Of a DNA stretch of 64,000 nt, positions 10,073 through 46,466 are shown in pieces. The stretch comes from an uncultured Desulfobacteraceae bacterium (lineage in GTDB: Bacteria > Desulfobacterota > Desulfobacteria > Desulfobacterales > UBA5852). Within the stretch, counting starts at the first letter, position 1; each line of letters starts with the position of its first letter. The stretch is from the NCBI GenBank assembly GCA_913060875.1, contig CAJXSL010000004.1, positions 248,001 through 312,000 of the forward strand. The letters run 5' to 3'. The translations under genes were made by a program, and so were the position numbers. A model generated the notes under the pieces. The model was not told the origin of the DNA, searched no databases, and saw only the letters and a program-made list of their open reading frames with translations.

Positions 10073-10818
10073 GGCTCAAACCCCCATTTTTCCCAAATTG
10101 CCAGGCCTTCCGGGGAGGCCACGTAGGCATTGAAGGCCTGGGCCAGCTCCCGGTGGGGCGCTTTGGTGCAGACCGCCGTGGGAATGGTTTTGATGATGTT
10201 GCGCGGGGCATCGATGGGCACGACGTCGATTTTGCCCTTGCCCTCGGCCCAACTGGTCAGGTCGCGCCAAATGATGGCGGCGTCCACCTGCTCCAGCGCC
10301 ACGTAGATCAGCAACTGGTTGACCGTGGGGGCATACACCTGGATATTGGGCTGCACGGTTTCCCACAGGTTCGCCTTGACCAGGATTTTTTTGGCCACCC
10401 GGCCGATGGCCGGCGCCTTGGGGTCGCCGATGGAAACCCGCACACCTTCGCGGGTCAGGTCGTCCAGTCCGGCCACCTTGGCGGGGTTGCCCCTGGGAAC
10501 GGCGATTACGGGCTTGTGCAGCACGAGGTTGCGGATGGAGTCTTTCTCCACCCAGCCGTTTTTGAGGGCATCCATGGTGTATTTGGCGGCCCCCGGAATC
10601 AAAACGTCGCAGGGCTGGCCCGCGCCCAGCATCCCGAAAATTTCACCGGATCCGCCGTAATGAATGTCCACCTCGACCTTGTGCTGAGCCTGAAAATTGG
10701 CCCGCATCTCTTCCAGGGGCTTGATCAGCCCCGCACCGCTGAACACCGTCAAATCCGCGGCGGACACGCTCAACGCCGTCAATAAAACCAGCAACCATCC
10801 CAATCCGATCGATTTCAT
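10060..10818 (-). CDS. Periplasmic oxyanion-binding protein, ModA-like
   Basis: The ATG at 10818 has GGAGG 6 nt upstream and begins a clean signal peptide, MKSIGLGWLLVLLTALSVSAA, giving a 252-residue protein; the frame upstream to 10911 is not needed. The mature part starts with LTVFSGAGLIKPLEEM and contains YGGSGEIFGMLGAGQPCDVLIPG and VPRGNPAKV, the arrangement of ModA-type binding proteins. It captures molybdate or tungstate in the periplasm for the following permease and ATPase. No ModE-type operator was recognised upstream. Confidence 0.88.
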   Translation of the reverse strand: MKSIGLGWLLVLLTALSVSAADLTVFSGAGLIKPLEEMRANFQAQHKVEVDIHYGGSGEIFGMLGAGQPCDVLIPGAAKYTMDALKNGWVEKDSIRNLVLHKPVIAVPRGNPAKVAGLDDLTREGVRVSIGDPKAPAIGRVAKKILVKANLWETVQPNIQVYAPTVNQLLIYVALEQVDAAIIWRDLTSWAEGKGKIDVVPIDAPRNIIKTIPTAVCTKAPHRELAQAFNAYVASPEGLAIWEKWGFEPCAP

Positions 10819-11278
10819 TTGGAACCTCCGTTTGAAGTACGTCACAACTGCCCCGTCCCGATACCACAGTTGTAAGCATATGTCCATAAACATACCGATT
10901 AATTTTGTCACGGGCGCAAAACAACCATTTCAAACCAATACTCTGTCATTTTAACAGCGGGAGGGGTTGTGCGGATCATAAAGCGGTGCCCGGTCGACAC
11001 CAGGGGGATAGACCTATTGTGCCGGATTCCGGATCAAGTCCGGCATCTTGTTGGCTATCGGAATGGAAATGGGGAAGATTCCGGATGCGTCCGGAATGAC
11101 GTTGAAACAGGGAATCCTGTTTCGAGGAAGTCTACCGAGAGGAAAATCCCCGAGGGTAAAATGTTATCGGGCAAACAAGGGCGATTGTTTGGGATGGTCG
11201 AAAAATAATCCGGCCCTTCGGCTGCCGGTACCCGAAAGTACCGACCGCCGATCAGCAGAACGTATATTGGGAAACCGA
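10819..11278. other. Intergenic with dispersed palindromes, no gene
   Basis: Upstream of the importer operon and downstream of clpB. An ATTCCGGA/TCCGGAAT inverted repeat with a 4-nt loop lies at 11078-11097 and a related diverged copy around 11026-11044. A CGGTAC/GTACCG hairpin with a 6-nt loop lies near 11226-11243, downstream of clpB, but without an adjacent T tract. ORFs here are composed of repeat sequence and are not supported. Confidence 0.6.
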
Positions 11279-13861
11279 TCAATCCTGTTCAAAAACGATG
11301 CGATCCCCCTCCCGGTCGGCACGAATCCGCGAGCCCTCCCCGACGCTGCCCTTGAGCAGTTCCATGGCCAGAGGGTTTTCGATATACTGCTGAATGGCCC
11401 GTTTCAGGGGGCGGGCGCCGTAGACCCGGTCGTAGCCCTTTTCGGCCAGGAGGTCCCGGGCCGCGTCGCTGAGCTCCAGGGTGATGTGGCGTTCGCCCAG
11501 GCGCCTGGCCAGGTGCCCCATCTGGATATCCACGATGGCCGCGATTTGCTCGGGCCGCAGCCCCAGGAAAATAATGGTCTCGTCGATGCGGTTTAAAAAC
11601 TCCGGCTTGAAGCTGGCCCGCAGGGCCTCCATCACCCGCCGCTCCATTTCGCCGCGGTCGTTTGCCGCCAGGTTATGGATCATCTGGCTGCCCACATTGG
11701 AGGTCATGATAATGATGGTGTTCTTGAAGTCCACGGTGCGGCCCTTGCCGTCGGTCATGCGGCCGTCGTCCAGAATCTGCAGCAAAACGTTGAAGACTTC
11801 CGGGTGGGCCTTTTCGATCTCGTCGAAAAGCACCACGGCGTAGGGCCGGCGGCGCACAGCCTCGGTGAGGTAGCCGCCCTCGTCGTAGCCCACATAGCCC
11901 GGAGGGGCACCGATCAGGCGGGCCACGGAATGCTTCTCCATGTATTCGGACATGTCCACCCGCACGATGGCCTGCTCGCTGTCGAAGATGAACTCCGCCA
12001 GGGCCTTGGCCAGTTCGGTCTTGCCCACGCCGGTGGGTCCCATGAAAATGAAGGAGCCGATGGGACGATCCGGATCCTGCAGTCCGGAACGGGCCCGGCG
12101 CACGGCATTGGAAACGGCCGCGATGGCCTCTTCCTGGCCGATGACCCGACGGCCCAGGCGCGCTTCCATACGCACCAGTTTTTCGCGCTCGCCTTCCAGC
12201 ATCTTGCTGACCGGAATACCGGTCCAGCGGGAAACCACCTCGGCGATGTCCTCGTCGTCCACCTCTTCCTTGAGCATCTTCTTCTCGCCCTGCAGCTCGG
12301 CCAGTTTGGTGCGCACCGCCTCCATGCGGCGCTCCAGTTCGGTGGCCTTGCCGTAGCGGATTTCCGCCACCCGGGCCAGGTCGCCGTCACGCTGGGCCAG
12401 TTCCGCCTCGGTGCCCAGCTGCTCCTGCTGCTCCTTGATCTCCCGGAGTTGCTGGATCAACTGTTTTTCATGCTGCCAGTGGGCTTTCATGCCCCGCATG
12501 GCCTCACCCAGGCTTTCCACCTCTTCATCCAGTTTTTGCAGGCGGTTCCGGGAATCCGGATCGGACTCCTTCTTGAGGGCCTGGCGCTCGATTTCAGCCT
12601 GGGTGATGCGGCGCTGGATCTCGTCGATCTCGCTGGGCATGCTGTCGATCTCGATGCGCAGCTTGGAGGCGCACTCGTCCACCAGGTCGATGGCCTTGTC
12701 CGGCAAAAAACGGTCGGCAATATAGCGGTCCGACAGGGTGGCGGCCGCCACGATGGCGGAATCCTTGATGCGCACCCCGTGGTGCACCTCGTATTTTTCC
12801 TTGAGTCCCCGCAGGATGGAGATGGTGTCTTCGATGGTGGGCTCGGGCACCAGCACCGGCTGGAAACGGCGTTCGAAAGCGGCGTCCTTTTCGATGTACT
12901 TGCGGTATTCCTTCAAGGTGGTGGCCCCCACGCAGCGCAGGGTGCCGCGGGCCAGGGCCGGTTTGAGCATGTTGGAGGCGTCCATGGCGCCCTCGGCCGC
13001 GCCGGCCCCCACCAGGGTGTGGAGTTCGTCGATAAACAGGATGATGTCGCCTTCGGCGTTTTCCACCTCTTTTAAAACCGCCTTGAGGCGGTCTTCGAAT
13101 TCCCCCCGGTATTTGGCCCCGGCGATGAGGGCCCCCATGTCGAGGGCCACCAGGCGCCGGTTCTTGAGGGATTCGGACACGTCCCCCTCGGCAATGCGGC
13201 GGGCCAGGCCCTCCACGATGGCGGTCTTGCCCACGCCGGGCTCGCCGATCAAAACCGGATTGTTCTTGGTCCGGCGGGAGAGCACCTGGACGATGCGGCG
13301 GATTTCTTCGTCACGGCCGATCACCGGGTCCAGCTTGCCCTGGCGGGCCAGTTCGGTGAGATCCCGGCTGAACTTCTCCAGGGCCTGGTATTTCTCTTCC
13401 GGGTTGGGGTCGGTAATGCGCTGGGAGCCACGGATTTCCATGAGCACCTTGAGCAGGTTGCTCCGGGTCAGGCCGTGGCGCCGGAGAATCGATGCCGCCT
13501 CGCCGCCCTTGGCGTCCGCCAGCACCAGCAGGATGTGCTCGATGCTGACGTATTCGTCTTTCATCTTGGCGGCCTCGTCAAAGGCCTTTTCCAGCACGGC
13601 CCGGGTGTCGAGCGCCATATAGATCTCCTGGGCGCCGCTGACCTTGGGCAGGCGGTCCACCGCCGCCTGGACCTCGTCGCGCACCGTATCCGGGGACACC
13701 CCCAGCTTGCGCAGCACCGTGCGGGCCATGCCCTCCTTCTCCTCCAGCATGGCCAGCAGCACGTGTTCGTTCACGATCTGCTGGTTGCCAAAGCGCGATG
13801 CCAGCGACTGGGCGTTCTGGACCATCTCCTGGGATTTAATGGTCAACTTGTCAAACCGCAT
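11279..13861 (-). CDS. clpB: ATP-dependent disaggregase ClpB
   Basis: An 860-residue AAA+ chaperone, the usual length, that resolves protein aggregates with DnaK in the cytoplasm after heat stress. Order of domains: N-terminal Clp repeat domain (residues 1-150), NBD1 with Walker A GEPGVGKT near residue 205, the long coiled-coil M domain (about 400-530, rich in E, Q, R and L) that separates ClpB from ClpA/ClpC, and NBD2 with GPTGVGKT near 607 and the sensor-2 region [18 protein letters not shown]. The start at 13861 has AGGAGG upstream. The gene stands alone; no sigma32-type promoter or CIRCE element was recognised. Confidence 0.97.
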
Positions 13862-37732: not shown

Positions 37733-38494
37733 GTGGAATCTCAAGCGCCACCGATCTGGCGGGAGGTCTATCCGGTGCGTTCCTATGACGTGGACGCCCG
37801 CGGGCGGCTGGGTATCGCATCCATCTGCAATTTCATGCAGGATGCCGCAGGCTGCCATGCGCACGCCTTGAACTTATCCGTTGAACATTTACACGCGATT
37901 CACCTCACCTGGGTACTGGTGCGCATGCGTGTCGAGATAGATCGCCACCTGGGATGGCAGGATCGCATGCATATTGAAACCTGGCCGTCGCACCAGGACA
38001 AACTCTTCAGCCACCGGGATTTTATCCTGCGCGACGACGAAGGCGAAACGATAGGGCGAAGTGTCACGGTTTGGGTACTGATGGATTTACAGCGCTGGCG
38101 GCCCCAACGCCTGGGTGCGCTTCCCCATCCCTTGCCCATAGGGGAGCGCCCCCGTGCCATGGCAGCCATACCGGATAAAATCGACGTGCCCGAAACGTTT
38201 GCCACCGAGCAGATGTTTCGGGTCGGGGATGGCGACCTGGACCGCAACGGCCACGTCAACAATGTTCGCTACATTGAATGGGCCCTGGAGACGGTGCCGG
38301 TGCCGATTCTCAACACCTGCTGCCTGGACACTTTGGAAATCAATTTCACCGGAGAAGCATTTCATGGCGAAACCATCCGGGCCGCCAGCCAACCCCTGGA
38401 CGATCCCCGGCCGTCCTTTCAGCACGGCATCCAGCGTCAACCGGCCGGAGCAGAGCTTGCACGGGCCCGGACACAGTGGCAACGCATGGATTAG
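37733..38494 (+). CDS. Acyl-ACP thioesterase
   Basis: A 253-residue double hot-dog protein that releases fatty acids from acyl-ACP. The first hot-dog includes VRSYDVDARGRLGIASICNFMQDAAG and WVLVRMRVEIDR; the second includes the segment DLDRNGHVNNVRYIEWAL, with the Asp/Asn/His residues conserved in plant-type FatA/FatB and bacterial TE enzymes. Translation starts at GTG 37733, directly after the CBS-ACT gene. Bacterial members feed free fatty acid or other lipid-modifying pathways. Confidence 0.85.
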   Translation: MESQAPPIWREVYPVRSYDVDARGRLGIASICNFMQDAAGCHAHALNLSVEHLHAIHLTWVLVRMRVEIDRHLGWQDRMHIETWPSHQDKLFSHRDFILRDDEGETIGRSVTVWVLMDLQRWRPQRLGALPHPLPIGERPRAMAAIPDKIDVPETFATEQMFRVGDGDLDRNGHVNNVRYIEWALETVPVPILNTCCLDTLEINFTGEAFHGETIRAASQPLDDPRPSFQHGIQRQPAGAELARARTQWQRMD

Positions 38495-39650: not shown

Positions 39651-39698
39651 AACCAATGACCGGTTTCACCGATGCCACACGGTAATGAAAGTGGCCCA

Positions 39699-40955
39699 AT
39701 GCGCATCAATCGAATTCAGTGTTATCATTACAACAGAGCGTTCACAGTTCCCTTTGACTCCCTTCAAACGCAAAGAAGACATGCCGACTCCGTCATCGTC
39801 CGCATGTGGTGCGACAACGGCGTTTCCGGTTTCGGTGAAGGTGCGCCGCGCCCTTATGTCACCGGAGAAGATGTTGCTTCAGTCGTTGAATGCATCAATT
39901 CCATTTTCGCCCCCATCCTGTTTTCCTCCGGAATAAAAGATCTGGATACGGCCGCCGGGCTCCTGACACAATGCGAAGCCGCCTGCCAAAACAACGCTAT
40001 CAGGGCCTATCACGCGGCGCTGGCCGCCATTGACCTGGCGCTCATGGATATCCTGGAAAATGCCGATCGGTTGTCGGCAGGGTCTCTTTACGGCCGTCAG
40101 CTGCGGCAGCAGTTGCCGTTTTCGGCCTCCGTCCCGTTTTTACCACTGAACCTGATCAAAGACTTTTTCCCACTTCTGAATGCCAAACTCGATATCAAGA
40201 TTATCAAAATCCTCATTGACGACAATCCCCAGCGCAACCGCGAGCGGGTCCAGTTGATCCATAGTTTGGCCAACGCCGACCAGGAGTTAAGGCTTGAAGC
40301 CAATGGCAAATTGAGTTTTGACCAAATCCAAAATCAACTTGACCATCTCCAGCCTTTTGGCATTGCTGCGATTGAGCAACCCCTGCCGCCCGCCGACAAT
40401 GCCCGCCTGCCCGAGCTTCGACAGTCGAGCGGTATGGCGATCATTGCCGATGAATCGCTGGTCAGTATCGCCGATGCCCGAGCATTGATTGAACTCGAAG
40501 GGTGCGATGTTTTCAACATCAAGGTATCCAAATGCGGTGGGATTCTTCGGGCCCGGTCCATTGCGAACCTGGCGGCAGCGCATGGCATTGACTGTCACGT
40601 CGGAACCCATGTCGGTGAAACCGAACTTCTGGGCGCTGCGGGGCGTCATCTGGCCTGCGCATTACCGAATTTCGATGCTTATGGAGGGGGATCTCCCGTT
40701 TTGTTTTCGCGCCTTTTTGCCGCAGATTCCGATCCACAGCCCAAGACGTCAACTGTTCCCGAAAAAGAAAACGTGATCGCGCCCTCAGCCAGGGAAGACC
40801 TTTTGCGCCAAAGCCCACTGATCAGTGACACCGGCAAGCCTTCCGGTGCAAAGCGGATCGATCCATCTGGGCTTCAGCCGCAGGTAAATCGCCCTCGCGG
40901 CGATACGGAAAACTGTACGACCGCAAACCACGCATTAAATCAAAGGGACAAGTAA
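39699..40955 (+). CDS. Enolase-superfamily protein, dipeptide epimerase/MLE-like
   Basis: A 418-residue protein from the ATG at 39699; another ATG lies at 39672. The N-terminal capping domain (SVIVRMWCDNGVSGFGEGAPRPYVTGED) and barrel fit the muconate-lactonizing/dipeptide epimerase group. The Lys in FNIKVSKCGGILRAR and acidic ligands in AAIEQPL and IIADESL are present. However, the usual KxK motif reads KIIK (K in IKIIKILIDD), and the first metal ligand Asp is Glu (RLEANGK), so the active site is unusual. About 70 polar residues follow the barrel, probably a disordered tail. Stop and next start overlap (TAATG), coupling it to the radical SAM gene. Confidence 0.8.
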   Translation: MRINRIQCYHYNRAFTVPFDSLQTQRRHADSVIVRMWCDNGVSGFGEGAPRPYVTGEDVASVVECINSIFAPILFSSGIKDLDTAAGLLTQCEAACQNNAIRAYHAALAAIDLALMDILENADRLSAGSLYGRQLRQQLPFSASVPFLPLNLIKDFFPLLNAKLDIKIIKILIDDNPQRNRERVQLIHSLANADQELRLEANGKLSFDQIQNQLDHLQPFGIAAIEQPLPPADNARLPELRQSSGMAIIADESLVSIADARALIELEGCDVFNIKVSKCGGILRARSIANLAAAHGIDCHVGTHVGETELLGAAGRHLACALPNFDAYGGGSPVLFSRLFAADSDPQPKTSTVPEKENVIAPSAREDLLRQSPLISDTGKPSGAKRIDPSGLQPQVNRPRGDTENCTTANHALNQRDK

Positions 40956-42313
40956 TGCCAAAACTTGTACTGATAAACCCTGTCGGGAAAAAAAGCGGCT
41001 ACCTCATGAGCAGTATTTCCCGGTTTGCCCCGCTCGGATTAGCCTATATTGCCGCCGTAACACCGGGACACTGGGATATCGAAATCATCGACGAAAATTT
41101 TGACACCTTCGAATATACGGCCGCCGACCTTGTGGGCATAACGGCCTTCACCAGCAACATTAACCGGGCCTACGACATTGCCGATACGTACCGCCGAAAA
41201 GGTACGAAAGTCATTATCGGCGGCATTCATGCATCGATGGCCCCGGACGAAACCGCCAAGTTTGCCGATACCGTCGTTGTCGGTGAAGCCGAAAACATCT
41301 GGCCGCAAATCATCGCGGACTTTGAACAGGGCCGTCTCGCCCCGTTGTATCAAGGGCCCCGAATCGACCTGTCCCAGGGGAACCTGCGCCCCCGGCGGGA
41401 CTTGCTGCACCCGGGCTATTTTTGGCAATCGGTGCAAACGTCCCGTGGCTGCCCATTTGACTGTTATTTCTGTTCGGTCAGCCGCTATTTAGGGCGGCGC
41501 TACCGCCAGCGTCCGGTGGAAGATGTCCTGGAAGAACTCGAATCCATCGAAAGCCCCAATATCGCCTTTGTCGACGACAACCTTATCGGCTACGGCGACG
41601 ACAGCCGCGCACGGGCCAAAGCACTTTTCCGCGGCATGATCGACCGCAAACTCAATAAAAAATGGTGGATGCAGACCTCCATCAATGCCGCCGAGGACGA
41701 ATCCGTCATCAGGCTTGCGGCGGAAGCCGGCTGTCTCTTTGTATTCATCGGCTTTGAAACCATTGACCAGGGATCGCTCAAGAAAATGAAGAAGGGGGTC
41801 AACCTCAGGGCGGGTGTGGAAAGCTACCAGGCGACGGCACGAATTTATCACCGTTACGGCATTGGTGTATTGGGTGCATTCATCCTGGGGAATGATCATG
41901 AGTCGGCCAACTATTACAAGCGTCTGGCCGATTTTCTTCTCAAATCCGGAATCGATGCCTTTCAAATCAGCATTCTGACACCCCTTCCGGGCACACGCCT
42001 CATGGATGATCAAATCGCCGCCAGCAACTTGATTTATGACAATTTCCCCGATGACTGGGAGAAATACCGTTTTTCTTACATGGTGCACTATCCCCAAGGG
42101 ATTGACCGCGAGACGGTCTACATCGGGGACAACTACATCAAAAACCGTTTGTACGCTTTTCCCTTTTTTCACTATCGAATGTTGCGTTCATTCTTTCAAC
42201 TCAAGAACCCCTATAATTTCATGGTAACGGTAAAACTGAACCAAGCGCTAAAACGCAGTTGGAAGAACTCGCACTACTATCAAAAATATCCCAAACGATT
42301 TGACGTCAACTGA
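40955..42313 (+). CDS. B12-binding-domain radical SAM protein
   Basis: A 452-residue radical SAM enzyme with an N-terminal cobalamin-binding-like domain (residues 1-130, with KVIIGGIHASMAPDETAKFADTV and VVGEAENIW) and a C-terminal SAM barrel. The cluster motif CxxxCxxC is Cys166, Cys170 and Cys173 in TSRGCPFDCYFCSVSRYLGRR. The AGCLFVFIGFET stretch is typical of this clan. These enzymes methylate unactivated carbons or do ring contractions. It starts at ATG 40955, sharing one nucleotide with the enolase-family stop, so the two proteins are made together. Substrate is unknown. Confidence 0.87.
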   Translation: MPKLVLINPVGKKSGYLMSSISRFAPLGLAYIAAVTPGHWDIEIIDENFDTFEYTAADLVGITAFTSNINRAYDIADTYRRKGTKVIIGGIHASMAPDETAKFADTVVVGEAENIWPQIIADFEQGRLAPLYQGPRIDLSQGNLRPRRDLLHPGYFWQSVQTSRGCPFDCYFCSVSRYLGRRYRQRPVEDVLEELESIESPNIAFVDDNLIGYGDDSRARAKALFRGMIDRKLNKKWWMQTSINAAEDESVIRLAAEAGCLFVFIGFETIDQGSLKKMKKGVNLRAGVESYQATARIYHRYGIGVLGAFILGNDHESANYYKRLADFLLKSGIDAFQISILTPLPGTRLMDDQIAASNLIYDNFPDDWEKYRFSYMVHYPQGIDRETVYIGDNYIKNRLYAFPFFHYRMLRSFFQLKNPYNFMVTVKLNQALKRSWKNSHYYQKYPKRFDVN

Positions 42314-42388: not shown

Positions 42389-44338
42389 TTAAGCGGACAC
42401 CACGCGCAGCCATGGCTTACGCGGTGCTTTATGCTTGAAATACGCGAGAAAAGCGTCGACCACCCGCCTGTCGAAATGGGTGCCTGCTTTTGACTGCAGG
42501 AGTAAAATGGCGTTCTCTTCCGTCATGGGGTCGCGGTAATGACGCATGGAGGTAATCGCCTCGAAAAAGTCGGCCACGGCGATGATTCGGGCCCCCAGAG
42601 GAATCGACTCGCCTTTCAATCCATCGGGATAACCGTTGCCATCGTAGCGTTCATGATGCCCTCCGGCAATATCCGGAACCTGGGCAAAAACACCTTCGAA
42701 ATGCACCTGCTCCAGAATCTCCCTGGTTTTTTGGGCATGCATCCGAACGATTTTGGTTTCCTCTTCTGTTAGGACACCCGGTTTTTTCAAAACGGCATCC
42801 GGGACACCAATTTTACCGTAATCGTGCAGCAGTGCGGCGACACGAACCGCCTCCTTGTATTCCCGATCCACAGCCAGTTCGTCGCAAATCCCCATGGCAT
42901 AGAGGGTAACATTTTCCGAATGTCCCTTGGTCAGCGGGTCCCGCGCATCGATTGAGGCGCCCAGTACGCGCAACAGTGAGTTCATCTGGCGTTCGCGTGC
43001 TTCAATCAACTGGGCATTCTTGATGCTGATGCCGAGGACCGATGCGACACCATTGAGCAGCCGCAGATCCGTCTCGACCAACGGGCGATTGGTATTTAAG
43101 TTGTCCACCGCCAAAATACCCAGCGCGTCTCCGTCACTGACAATCGGGCAGCAAATAAAGGCTTTGGATCCAACCTTCTTGGCGAACTCAAGGCTACGCG
43201 GCGACAATTCGTCCTGTATATCGTCAAGATCATCGATTAAAAATGGCTTTTGCTCACGATAGGAAACGACAAAAACCCCGCGAGACCCAGGTTTGTCCAA
43301 GCTAAAATACAGATGCTCAAGCCATTTGCGGTGCAGATGAGAATAGCCGAAACCCGCCTTGAATTCCAAACGTGTCTTTTCCGGATTGGCTAACAGAATC
43401 ATGCCGCGGTCAAAATCCAAGCGATTTTGAATTGTTTGAATAATGCTTTTCAAAACAGCCGCAACCGTGGTTTTGCCGCTGATGGCCAACCCGATCTCAT
43501 TGGTTACAATGGAATTGTTATAGTTGATATTAATCTGGTCCAACAATTTCTCAGTGGAATCCATCAAGTGCGTGTGGCTTCGCTTTAAATCACTTTTTTC
43601 AATTTCCTGGCACACCAGCGAAACCAGCAGTGAGATTACCAGGGCCGCCGTCATTGATGTCACGACGGGAAAACCCGGCATGATCATCGCTGCCGTAACC
43701 AGGCCACCACCGATCAATGCCAGAACGATCGGGCTGAGTCGGCGCCAAACCAGAAGGGGTGATTTCTCCCAGGTAATGATGTAGCGGCAACAGCTGTCTC
43801 CCCGAAAAACACACTCGGGGTGGTCGACACGGGGGAATTTGTTCAAAAAGCCCGCGCCGATAGACTCTAAAAACCCTATTCGGTTCTCACACTGGAATGG
43901 TTGCTCCTGGACTCCGCCCCGGGGTGTAACGCGAATCTCGACTCTGTTGCCACTCAACCTTAGCGGCTCGAAAGTCGTCGAGCGTGTAAACTTGCTCGAT
44001 GCCAAACCCACCATGCTGTAAGCTTTAGCAGGATCGACCATGCCAAGAATATAGGGCCGAATCAGCCCGACAGCGTCTGGTGATGCGGCGTAGCGCCCGG
44101 CCTCTCTGGAGATATGGGGATTGTTCGTTATCTGGGAGAGCCGCTTATGGAAACGGTTGATTTGGTTTTGACTGAACCAGTGCCCGGGGTCCTTGACCTC
44201 ATACATTTCCATGTCGGCATAGGAAAGCAGGTCATGTACATTAACGTCGGCATAGCGCACACGAATAAGCCGGATATATGTGTCAATTATCCTGCTGTTG
44301 TAAAGAGGTGCGTCGTTGTCGTAATTAAGAGGGGGCAT
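42389..44338 (-). CDS. HD-GYP domain c-di-GMP phosphodiesterase with GAF domain
   Basis: A 649-residue protein. The N-terminal ~190 residues form a cytoplasmic sensor of the heme-NO/V4R-like kind, with FRGDSCCRYIITW at its end. Two hydrophobic segments follow (about 200-245), then a GAF domain (about 290-440, GMILLANPEKTRLEFKAG to SDGDALGILAVDNLN) and the HD-GYP domain: HSENVTLYAMGIC, LLHDYGKIGVPDAVLKKPG and GGHHERYDGNGYPDGLKG, all catalytic motifs present. It should hydrolyse c-di-GMP to GMP. It lies 25 nt after the PilZ-type gene on the same strand, so both probably belong to one operon. Confidence 0.92.
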   Translation of the reverse strand: MPPLNYDNDAPLYNSRIIDTYIRLIRVRYADVNVHDLLSYADMEMYEVKDPGHWFSQNQINRFHKRLSQITNNPHISREAGRYAASPDAVGLIRPYILGMVDPAKAYSMVGLASSKFTRSTTFEPLRLSGNRVEIRVTPRGGVQEQPFQCENRIGFLESIGAGFLNKFPRVDHPECVFRGDSCCRYIITWEKSPLLVWRRLSPIVLALIGGGLVTAAMIMPGFPVVTSMTAALVISLLVSLVCQEIEKSDLKRSHTHLMDSTEKLLDQININYNNSIVTNEIGLAISGKTTVAAVLKSIIQTIQNRLDFDRGMILLANPEKTRLEFKAGFGYSHLHRKWLEHLYFSLDKPGSRGVFVVSYREQKPFLIDDLDDIQDELSPRSLEFAKKVGSKAFICCPIVSDGDALGILAVDNLNTNRPLVETDLRLLNGVASVLGISIKNAQLIEARERQMNSLLRVLGASIDARDPLTKGHSENVTLYAMGICDELAVDREYKEAVRVAALLHDYGKIGVPDAVLKKPGVLTEEETKIVRMHAQKTREILEQVHFEGVFAQVPDIAGGHHERYDGNGYPDGLKGESIPLGARIIAVADFFEAITSMRHYRDPMTEENAILLLQSKAGTHFDRRVVDAFLAYFKHKAPRKPWLRVVSA

Positions 44339-44363
44339 GCCGGCTTTTTCATCTACTGTAAGA

Positions 44364-46466
44364 TTAATGCTTGGCCATTCGAAACATACGATCGATAAAC
44401 TTAAAGTATTTGTCTGAATAGCGCGTATTCAATATCCAGAGACAATATGTTTTCTCAATGGGGATCTTCATCGCTTCGACAGCCTCGACAGGATACATCA
44501 ACAGCGGCATGTCAATACTGAGCTGGTAATCGCGGAAAATCCGACACAGCCCATTTTCGATGATGGTGCGATCCACTTCATGCTTGTCGATGATGAGCAC
44601 CTTGACACAATTGGTAAGATCCGAAAGGTTCAATCCGATATTGGATCGATGGATGATAATGCAGGCGCACAGCCTTCCGCGCCGCCTCAAGGCCAAAAGA
44701 GTCCGATCTTTGGCAAACCCGTGATGACGATATTCATCCATCAAATCCTGTGAGTCAAAGGTGTGCAGATCCAAATCCAGGCAGTCAAGCATCAGACCAC
44801 CGGAGTAATGCTGGTACCAGTGCCCCAGTTCCTGCATATCCGATTCGTCACACTCGGCCAGTTCCCACTCGGGTGGCAGCACTTCGAATACCTCTGAGTC
44901 TCCGCCCATGTGGCAATAAGCGAATTCATCGATCGAGCAGCCATTCTGGTCTTTGGCATAGCGGTTGAAGCCACCGAAAACACTGCTAGGGAAATGATTC
45001 TCAGGGCGAAAATAGCACATCAGATATTTCATGTGCATCGAATACAAACGGTGTGAATCGTAGGTAAAGCAGCCGATCTGATTTAATACGGTGAGTCCGG
45101 CGCGAACCATAAAGCGTTTGCGGGCAGCGTGATGGTGAATCAACCAGGCATTTTCATAAAGCCGTACCATGGCCATATGGGCCAGAATGCGGCCTTTGTT
45201 CTGATAGATAAAATGCCGGGCGATGGTTGGGTTCTGGGTGTAGAGCTTCCAGTACGTTTCTTTGATCTTCTCTTTATTCGCCTGGATATAGGCATACTTT
45301 TTAGGATAAATGAACCCCGTTTCGAAGAAGAAATCCCAGAGCGCATCCATCTCAACGCGGGTATTAATATAAGAATTTTGGTTATCGGCCTGGTGTAACA
45401 AGGACAACAGCTTCAAATGCTCATTGCTGTCCATGTCGATAATGGCCAGCCCATTGACGATTTCACAGGACTCGTCATCACAGTCCGTCATGTTGCGATA
45501 GAGCACTTGGGCTTTGAAACGAATGGTCAGGCTATCCGCAAAAATTAATTCGACATCCGGAAGCATCATACCCGGCAGCAGCAATGAGTTGCCGACGCCT
45601 TCTACTACGGACAACCCCGAACCGGAGAGATCTTGTACTTTCAAGTTGACCGTTTGCCGCGTAAGCGGGTGTTGGAAAACAATATTCGGCGTTGGTTTCA
45701 GTTTTAGGCGTTTGCTGCGATAGGCTTTAGGGTTGTAACGATGAATCGACTGGGCCTGCGGCTCTAATACAAACCGGCGCCGCTGTCTGCCATTGTCGTG
45801 CTTGAGGATCGTAAAATCACCGGAGTAGATCAAATCACCACCGTCATAGACGATAAGATTCAGCAACTGATCATCATCGATACACTGAAATGTTTGCGGT
45901 GGGTTGATGTCGAGTTCCACAAGGAATGAACCGGTGCTGAACTCCACGAGTTCCCCTCGAAATAGCATGCTGTTTTGAATAACCTGCACCGGTACGCCAT
46001 CGCATGCGATACGGGTTTCGCGCCGATTGGAAATCTCCCAGCAATGCTCCGGCAGTTCAACGGACAACCCCTCCGCATCCAGCTTTAAAATTTGTGGTTC
46101 TACCATCAGGGCCGTTGCCCCATCGTCCACAAAGAAGGAAGTAAACTGATAATTATCGACGAGTGGGGCGACTTTTTCAGACTCCAGCCAAACGCAATCC
46201 AGCCGTTCCCCACAGCAAGGCAAAGGGCGTGCCTTGGTCGTCAGCGTACGCTCAAAACGCTTATGGGACATAACAACTTGAATGGTCCCATTCTGGAAAT
46301 TGATATAATTGAGTTTATTGATAAGATATTCGCGTTTGAGACGCGATCGATGGATGTCTTGTGCCGTGTCCGGTTCGATGGCAGGAGGAAGTTTTTTTTG
46401 ACTTCCTTCAATATCCGATTCGGCATTAGGTGTGGTGGGTTCGCTCTGGCGGCAGGCCCTTCTCAT
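44364..46466 (-). CDS. PilZ-domain protein with C-terminal acyltransferase-like domain
   Basis: A 700-residue protein without membrane segments. A first PilZ-like segment has RRETRIACDGVPVQVI with FSTGSFLVEL (about 145-190); a second, near 250-360, has YRSKRLKLKP and the DxSxxG motif DLSGSGLSVVEG. Both RxxxR-type and DxSxxG features are c-di-GMP contacts. The last ~330 residues look like a GNAT-type or FemX-like acyltransferase (YTQNPTIARHFIYQNKGRI then HHHAARKRFMVRAGLTVLNQ and a PEWELAECDESDMQELGHWY helix). Binding of c-di-GMP controlling an acyltransferase is inferred. It is upstream of the HD-GYP gene in the same operon. Confidence 0.72.
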   Translation of the reverse strand: MRRACRQSEPTTPNAESDIEGSQKKLPPAIEPDTAQDIHRSRLKREYLINKLNYINFQNGTIQVVMSHKRFERTLTTKARPLPCCGERLDCVWLESEKVAPLVDNYQFTSFFVDDGATALMVEPQILKLDAEGLSVELPEHCWEISNRRETRIACDGVPVQVIQNSMLFRGELVEFSTGSFLVELDINPPQTFQCIDDDQLLNLIVYDGGDLIYSGDFTILKHDNGRQRRRFVLEPQAQSIHRYNPKAYRSKRLKLKPTPNIVFQHPLTRQTVNLKVQDLSGSGLSVVEGVGNSLLLPGMMLPDVELIFADSLTIRFKAQVLYRNMTDCDDESCEIVNGLAIIDMDSNEHLKLLSLLHQADNQNSYINTRVEMDALWDFFFETGFIYPKKYAYIQANKEKIKETYWKLYTQNPTIARHFIYQNKGRILAHMAMVRLYENAWLIHHHAARKRFMVRAGLTVLNQIGCFTYDSHRLYSMHMKYLMCYFRPENHFPSSVFGGFNRYAKDQNGCSIDEFAYCHMGGDSEVFEVLPPEWELAECDESDMQELGHWYQHYSGGLMLDCLDLDLHTFDSQDLMDEYRHHGFAKDRTLLALRRRGRLCACIIIHRSNIGLNLSDLTNCVKVLIIDKHEVDRTIIENGLCRIFRDYQLSIDMPLLMYPVEAVEAMKIPIEKTYCLWILNTRYSDKYFKFIDRMFRMAKH

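What the first reader, a model, noticed from the sequence alone, without database searches (positions are those of the whole stretch)
42389..46466. Two-gene c-di-GMP module: PilZ-acyltransferase effector and HD-GYP eraser
The 700-residue protein has two PilZ-like segments and a large C-terminal acyltransferase-like domain; 25 nt downstream is a sensor-GAF-HD-GYP phosphodiesterase. Joining effector and eraser in one operon would give local control of an acylation reaction by c-di-GMP.
Basis: partly seen in the sequence, partly recalled or inferred. Interest (0 to 1): 0.6.

Follow-up and report, generated by a model that had tools for sequence, protein, structure and literature searches.

The report
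c-di-GMP-gated acyltransferase with paired phosphodiesterase
A bacterium of the Desulfobacterota type carries an enzyme that looks like an acyltransferase joined to two sensors for the signal molecule c-di-GMP, encoded next to a sensor protein that probably destroys that signal; the pair is conserved across many bacteria, and one similar enzyme is already known in Myxococcus.

Summary
In detail: two minus-strand genes, 700 aa (44364-46466) and 649 aa (42389-44338), 25 nt apart. The 700-aa protein belongs to a family of about 55 homologues, mostly Desulfobacterota. It has an N-terminal barrel, two PilZ domains and a C-terminal double GNAT domain. AlphaFold plus structure searches support this; sequence alone barely detects it. 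Presumed c-di-GMP-contact residues are nearly invariant (R148/R152; R250/R253, D279, G284). The partner is a sensor-GAF-HD-GYP protein with HD-GYP signature residues intact; the pair recurs even in a Spirochaete MAG. Two additions change the picture. (1) The sensor is the constant: in about 10 of 44 loci its output is not HD-GYP (hybrid histidine kinase where scanned). (2) A class-I methyltransferase family tracks the PilZ-GNAT (23 of 25 carrier genomes; p about 7e-25), and a natural GNAT-methyltransferase fusion exists. So this looks like a sensor-controlled enzymatic module with c-di-GMP as one input. Closest precedent: PixB of Myxococcus xanthus (two PilZ + GNAT, binds c-di-GMP). Catalysis, substrate, binding and 'local' control remain untested.

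The parts
44364..46466 (-). PilZ-PilZ-double-GNAT protein, 700 aa (residues 1-39 disordered)
46032..46349 (-). N-terminal domain, residues ~40-145; matched by the N-terminal barrels of VCA0042/MrkH/YcgR in structure comparison
   Evidence: boundaries approximate
45747..46025 (-). PilZ domain 1, residues ~148-240; R148xxxR152 (47/48), second motif degenerate (D/E-F-S/N)
   Evidence: (BcsA PilZ Z 10.8, 86 residues, 1.6 A)
45387..45728 (-). PilZ domain 2, residues ~247-360; R250xxR253 (47/48), D279xS281xxG284 (47, 41, 48 of 48)
   Evidence: (MrkH Z 14.1; c-di-GMP-bound PilZ domains Z 11-12)
44367..45383 (-). Double GNAT region, residues 362-700; conserved K390 Y391 H430 W441 H445 N490 S511 D513 G557 Y674
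42389..44338 (-). Sensor (V4R-like, tentative)-GAF-HD-GYP protein, 649 aa; hydrophobic stretch between sensor and GAF looks like two membrane spans (read by eye)
42455..42955 (-). HD-GYP domain, residues ~462-628; H473, H505D506, H534, H561H562E, DGxGYP (566-571) and D590 conserved
44339..44363 (-). 25-nt intergenic gap; genes abut or overlap in most relatives that have the pair, consistent with one transcript
39672..40955 (+). Enolase-superfamily (MR_MLE) enzyme, convergent neighbour; same cluster near 8 family loci, window included
40955..42313 (+). B12-binding radical SAM protein, convergent neighbour; same cluster near 7 family loci, window included

Best explanation
The 700-aa protein is a c-di-GMP-responsive acyltransferase: two PilZ domains (with a YcgR/MrkH-like receptor arrangement) sit on a double GNAT enzyme and switch its activity or access to substrate when c-di-GMP binds. 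The next gene makes a probably membrane-bound sensor whose HD-GYP domain hydrolyses c-di-GMP, so the sensed small molecule or state lowers the signal that the acyltransferase reads. Shown here by computation: gene order, folds, conserved residues, conserved adjacency. Inferred: that c-di-GMP binds, that the GNAT acylates something (probably a small molecule or lipid-like amine in a pathway shared with a methyltransferase and, in some genomes, an enolase-superfamily enzyme and a B12 radical SAM enzyme), that binding activates rather than inhibits, and that control is local.
For: PilZ: 42/48 members hit PF07238; PilZ2 aligns to MrkH (Z 14.1, 114 residues, 2.5 A) and to c-di-GMP-bound PilZ domains (Z 11-12), PilZ1 to BcsA PilZ (Z 10.8); motif residues conserved. 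Double GNAT: pLDDT 90; best alignment to HisAT (Z 13.9, 261 residues, 4.1 A), also VipF, glucosamine NAT, NMTs. HD-GYP signature residues invariant in 22 homologues. Linkage; full-length sensor-GAF-HD-GYP in 11 of 297 phylum genomes, 10 of which have the PilZ-GNAT (p 5e-10), the eleventh with the gene at the start of a short contig. Precedent that a PilZ2-GNAT protein binds c-di-GMP and needs its PilZ arginines: PixB (PMC8316039).
Against: No canonical CoA pyrophosphate loop (Q/RxxGxG/A) is visible at the expected place in either GNAT half (one search read), so the donor, and even catalysis, is uncertain. The R motif of PilZ2 is RxxR, not RxxxR, and PilZ1 has a degenerate second motif. The HD-GYP partner is absent in about 21 of 44 loci, replaced in 10 by a different sensor output. 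The genome has 17 PilZ matches elsewhere and several other HD-GYP proteins, so the c-di-GMP pool need not be private.
Confidence: 0.6

Rival explanations
1. The core unit is a sensor-controlled biosynthetic module (sensor-GAF protein, double GNAT, class-I methyltransferase, sometimes B12 radical SAM), in which the sensor reports on the pathway's substrate or product and c-di-GMP is just one of two interchangeable outputs. The HD-GYP is then not a dedicated local eraser for the neighbouring effector.
For: Methyltransferase family in 25 of 297 genomes, 23 shared with PilZ-GNAT (p 6.5e-25). GNAT-methyltransferase fusion without PilZ, followed directly by a sensor-GAF gene. Sensor output is a hybrid kinase in L045 and L048 and non-HD-GYP in about 10 loci; at least 4 HD-GYP/other switches on a quick tree. 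The closest relatives of the window's radical SAM gene lie near sensor genes.
Against: PilZ arginines, D279 and G284 are retained almost everywhere, whichever partner is present, so the c-di-GMP input seems to matter to the enzyme itself; HD-GYP is the majority partner and the one in the window's clade. The window's own genome lacks the methyltransferase at E 1e-40.
Confidence: 0.45
2. The double GNAT is catalytically inactive and acts as a c-di-GMP-switched binding or scaffold domain.
For: No canonical CoA-binding loop seen; Pfam Acetyltransf_1 hit in only 1 of 48 members.
Against: Polar residues of GNAT half 1 are invariant or nearly so (K390, H430, H445, N490, S511, D513, with W441), typical of an active site; W441/H445 equivalents appear in distant relatives with other architectures (by eye).
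Confidence: 0.15
3. The PilZ domains are structural only and do not bind c-di-GMP.
For: RxxR instead of RxxxR in PilZ2; degenerate second motif in PilZ1. Some PilZ proteins do not bind (PlpA, PMC8316039).
Against: R148, R152, R250, R253, D279 in 47/48 and G284 in 48/48 members; top structural matches include c-di-GMP complexes; PixB binds although its second motifs are altered.
Confidence: 0.12

Closest known systems
PixB (MXAN_2604), Myxococcus xanthus (PMC8316039)
   Same: Two PilZ domains and a C-terminal GNAT acetyltransferase domain; binds c-di-GMP in vitro; PilZ arginines needed for development; authors propose c-di-GMP-boosted acetylation.
   Different: PixB's mutated arginines are R121 and R331 (210 apart), here R148 and R250 (102 apart); both PixB PilZ domains lack the second-motif Ser, here PilZ2 keeps DxSxxG; PixB's AT domain was described as one GNAT domain, here a divergent double GNAT; no HD-GYP partner mentioned in the passages read.
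HfsK, Caulobacter crescentus (PMC5362036)
   Same: N-acetyltransferase-family protein that is a c-di-GMP effector.
   Different: Binding needs a short C-terminal extension, not PilZ; proposed to be inactivated by c-di-GMP.
cAMP-dependent acetyltransferase of Mycobacterium tuberculosis (cited in PMC8316039)
   Same: Second-messenger-binding domain fused to, and activating, an acetyltransferase.
   Different: cAMP and a cyclic-nucleotide-binding domain; not examined here.
YcgR / MrkH / VCA0042 / PlzA c-di-GMP receptors
   Same: Barrel plus PilZ arrangement; top structural matches of the N-terminal half.
   Different: No GNAT enzyme attached; here two PilZ domains plus an N-terminal barrel.
Double-GNAT enzymes (HisAT/NAT16 PMC12219266, NMT, VipF, clavulanate-pathway GNAT)
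   Same: Same double GNAT fold by structure comparison.
   Different: About 10% identity; canonical CoA loop not seen here; substrate unknown.

Membership tests
PilZ c-di-GMP receptors (PF07238) | PilZ fold / profile match | tested here: met
   42/48 members match; window protein itself below cut-off; fold matches Z 10.8-14.1
PilZ c-di-GMP receptors (PF07238) | RxxxR and D/NxSxxG motifs | tested here: inconclusive
   PilZ1: RxxxR yes, second motif degenerate. PilZ2: RxxR spacing, DxSxxG yes
PilZ c-di-GMP receptors (PF07238) | binds c-di-GMP | not testable with these tools
   needs ITC or DRaCALA
GNAT superfamily | GNAT fold | tested here: met
   AF2 pLDDT 90; Foldseek E 1.4e-10; VIA Z 13.9
GNAT superfamily | Q/RxxGxG/A acyl-CoA pyrophosphate loop after strand 4 | tested here: inconclusive
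   not visible in the aligned columns after the presumed strand 4 of either half; no coordinates to inspect; some GNAT-fold enzymes lack it (general knowledge)
GNAT superfamily | acyl transfer activity | not testable with these tools
   needs assay
HD-GYP phosphodiesterases | HD pair, further metal ligands and GYP motif | tested here: met
   HD_5 E 5.9e-43; H473, H505D506, H534, H561H562, D590 and DGxGYP conserved in 22 members; ligand roles from general knowledge of HD-GYP
HD-GYP phosphodiesterases | c-di-GMP hydrolysis | not testable with these tools
   needs assay
V4R sensor domain (PF02830) | profile match | tested here: inconclusive
   4/22 HD-GYP members at best E 0.0064, and 2.2e-4 in kinase homologue L048, below the curated cut-off there
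PixB orthologue | sequence homology to PixB | not tested

The most novel reading that the evidence does not exclude
A previously undescribed, cross-phylum signalling-plus-biosynthesis module: a PilZ-gated double-GNAT acyltransferase and a methyltransferase make a small acylated and methylated molecule, and an interchangeable-output sensor (HD-GYP or histidine kinase) detects that molecule and feeds back through c-di-GMP or phosphorylation.
Probability: 0.2. Interest if true: 0.8.

Novelty: new variant of a known kind. Interest (0 to 1): 0.52.

Why it matters
c-di-GMP effectors that directly control an enzyme's chemistry are few, and for the one published PilZ-PilZ-GNAT protein found here (PixB) the substrate is unknown. 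A large conserved family with fixed gene partners (sensor, methyltransferase, sometimes radical SAM and enolase-type enzymes) gives handles for finding the substrate and for testing whether an effector and its own phosphodiesterase form a local circuit.

Tried and rejected
Pfam, NCBIfam, PADLOC and PDB sequence searches with the 700-aa protein found nothing beyond a sub-threshold PilZ. Profile search of the PDB gave only a weak YcgR hit (E 0.81) and chance photosystem hits. Defence-system reading rejected: only chance-level Cas3-HD similarity of the HD domain. Phylum-wide co-occurrence of the enolase and radical SAM genes was uninformative because these superfamilies are broad. Promoter/terminator scan: numbers close to shuffles, no use. 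VIA rows with rmsd over 12 A for two-domain PilZ matches probably reflect different domain orientations and were not used as evidence of domain arrangement.

Full report
OBSERVATION. On the minus strand, 44364..46466 encodes 700 aa and 42389..44338 encodes 649 aa, with 25 nt between the stop and the next start. In most relatives that have the pair the two genes abut or overlap, so one transcript is likely.

FAMILY. The 700-aa protein matches 24 of 58 related genomes and 32 of 297 genomes spread over the phylum at E <= 0.001. Named hits are Desulfobacterales/Deltaproteobacteria MAGs and one Spirochaetes MAG. Direct library searches with the single sequence are nearly blind to it.

PILZ. Across 48 full-length homologues, 42 match PF07238, best E 7.9e-9. 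The full-length AlphaFold2 model (pLDDT 87; residues 1-39 disordered) has three beta-rich domains before the enzyme. In structural comparison, residues 250-366 align to MrkH (Z 14.1) and residues ~247-364 to c-di-GMP-bound PilZ domains of P. aeruginosa proteins and YcgR (Z 11-12). Residues ~147-271 align to the BcsA PilZ domain (Z 10.8, 86 residues, 1.6 A). Residues ~40-300 align over two domains to VCA0042. Conservation: R148 and R152 47/48; R250, R253 and D279 47/48; S281 41/48; G284 48/48. PilZ1 thus has the RxxxR motif with a degenerate second motif; PilZ2 has an RxxR spacing with an intact DxSxxG.

ENZYME. The C-terminal 339 residues modelled alone reach pLDDT 90.3 and pTM 0.89. Foldseek matches are GNAT enzymes, mostly double-GNAT (VipF, glucosamine N-acetyltransferase, clavulanate-pathway GNAT, NMT; E down to 1.4e-10). 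The best VIA alignment is to HisAT, Z 13.9 over 261 residues at 4.1 A. HisAT is a double-GNAT enzyme whose N-terminal half binds acetyl-CoA (PMC12219266). In this family the first half carries the stricter conservation (K390, Y391, H430, W441, H445, N490, S511, D513), so I infer that the first half is the active one. The usual acyl-CoA pyrophosphate loop is not evident in either half; the donor is therefore open.

PARTNER. The 649-aa protein has HD_5 (5.9e-43) and GAF (2.4e-13) domains. HD-GYP signature residues, including HD, H534, HHE and DGxGYP, are conserved in 22 homologues. The N-terminal ~190 residues are conserved and resemble V4R only weakly (2.2e-4 in the kinase homologue L048), so V4R is a tentative label.

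NEIGHBOURHOOD. Counting the rows by hand (44 loci, window included, the fusion L129 excluded): 23 have sensor-GAF-HD-GYP within 8 kb, 10 have the same sensor with a different C-terminus, 11 have neither (at least two of them cut by contig ends). The non-HD-GYP version is a PAS-HisKA-HATPase-receiver hybrid kinase in the two loci that were scanned, L045 and L048; in the others its nature is not shown. On a quick tree, HD-GYP and non-HD-GYP partners change at least four times. A ~270-aa class-I methyltransferase family lies near 27 of the 44. Over 297 phylum genomes, 23 of its 25 carriers have the PilZ-GNAT (Fisher p 6.5e-25; genomes are not phylogenetically independent, so the p value is only a guide). 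One genome encodes a double GNAT fused to this methyltransferase, without PilZ, immediately followed by a sensor-GAF gene. The window's genome lacks the methyltransferase at E 1e-40 and the four same-genus loci show none within 8 kb; there an enolase-superfamily gene and, in some, a B12 radical SAM gene lie convergent to the operon.

INTERPRETATION. The simplest reading is a PilZ-switched acyltransferase with a sensor-driven c-di-GMP phosphodiesterase beside it. The swap of the sensor's output and the methyltransferase link suggest that the sensor serves the pathway and that c-di-GMP is one wiring option. The two readings overlap, so their confidences are not exclusive. Whether control is local cannot be judged; the genome holds 17 PilZ matches elsewhere and several other HD-GYP proteins.

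KNOWN RELATIVES. PixB of M. xanthus has two PilZ domains and a GNAT domain, binds c-di-GMP, and its authors propose c-di-GMP-boosted acetylation (PMC8316039). It makes the basic idea already known. This family differs in arginine spacing, motif state, double GNAT and gene partners. Homology to PixB was not tested.

VERDICT.

Noticed in passing
L151:5115-7046 (G029): Natural fusion of a double GNAT (no PilZ) with the linked methyltransferase family, followed by a sensor-GAF gene and a second GNAT homologue at 10254-11354.
   Followed up: partly
L131:5216-8113 and L132:3958-6333: Distant PilZ-GNAT homologues (L131 with what reads by eye as an extra N-terminal PilZ) in clusters with radical-SAM-like proteins of another family and the methyltransferase.
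   Followed up: partly
A3 alignment, 2 of 22 members: Two of the sensor-GAF-HD-GYP proteins also match PilZ (best 1.2e-11), suggesting an HD-GYP with its own c-di-GMP receptor domain; probably the two ~768-aa members in L133 and L142.
   Followed up: no
L142 and L143 (G082): One genome carries two copies of the PilZ-GNAT / HD-GYP pair.
   Followed up: no
L048:6308-8374, L051:4495-6558: Enolase-superfamily enzyme fused to an alpha/beta hydrolase next to the PilZ-GNAT gene.
   Followed up: no
window 37733-38494: ORF resembling an acyl-ACP thioesterase by eye, upstream of the enolase-type gene; possible link to acyl supply.
   Followed up: no
G139:C7, G066:C8, G087:C6, G104:C43: Closest relatives (59-61% identity) of the window's B12 radical SAM protein lie within a few kb of a sensor-GAF gene in four genomes.
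   Followed up: no
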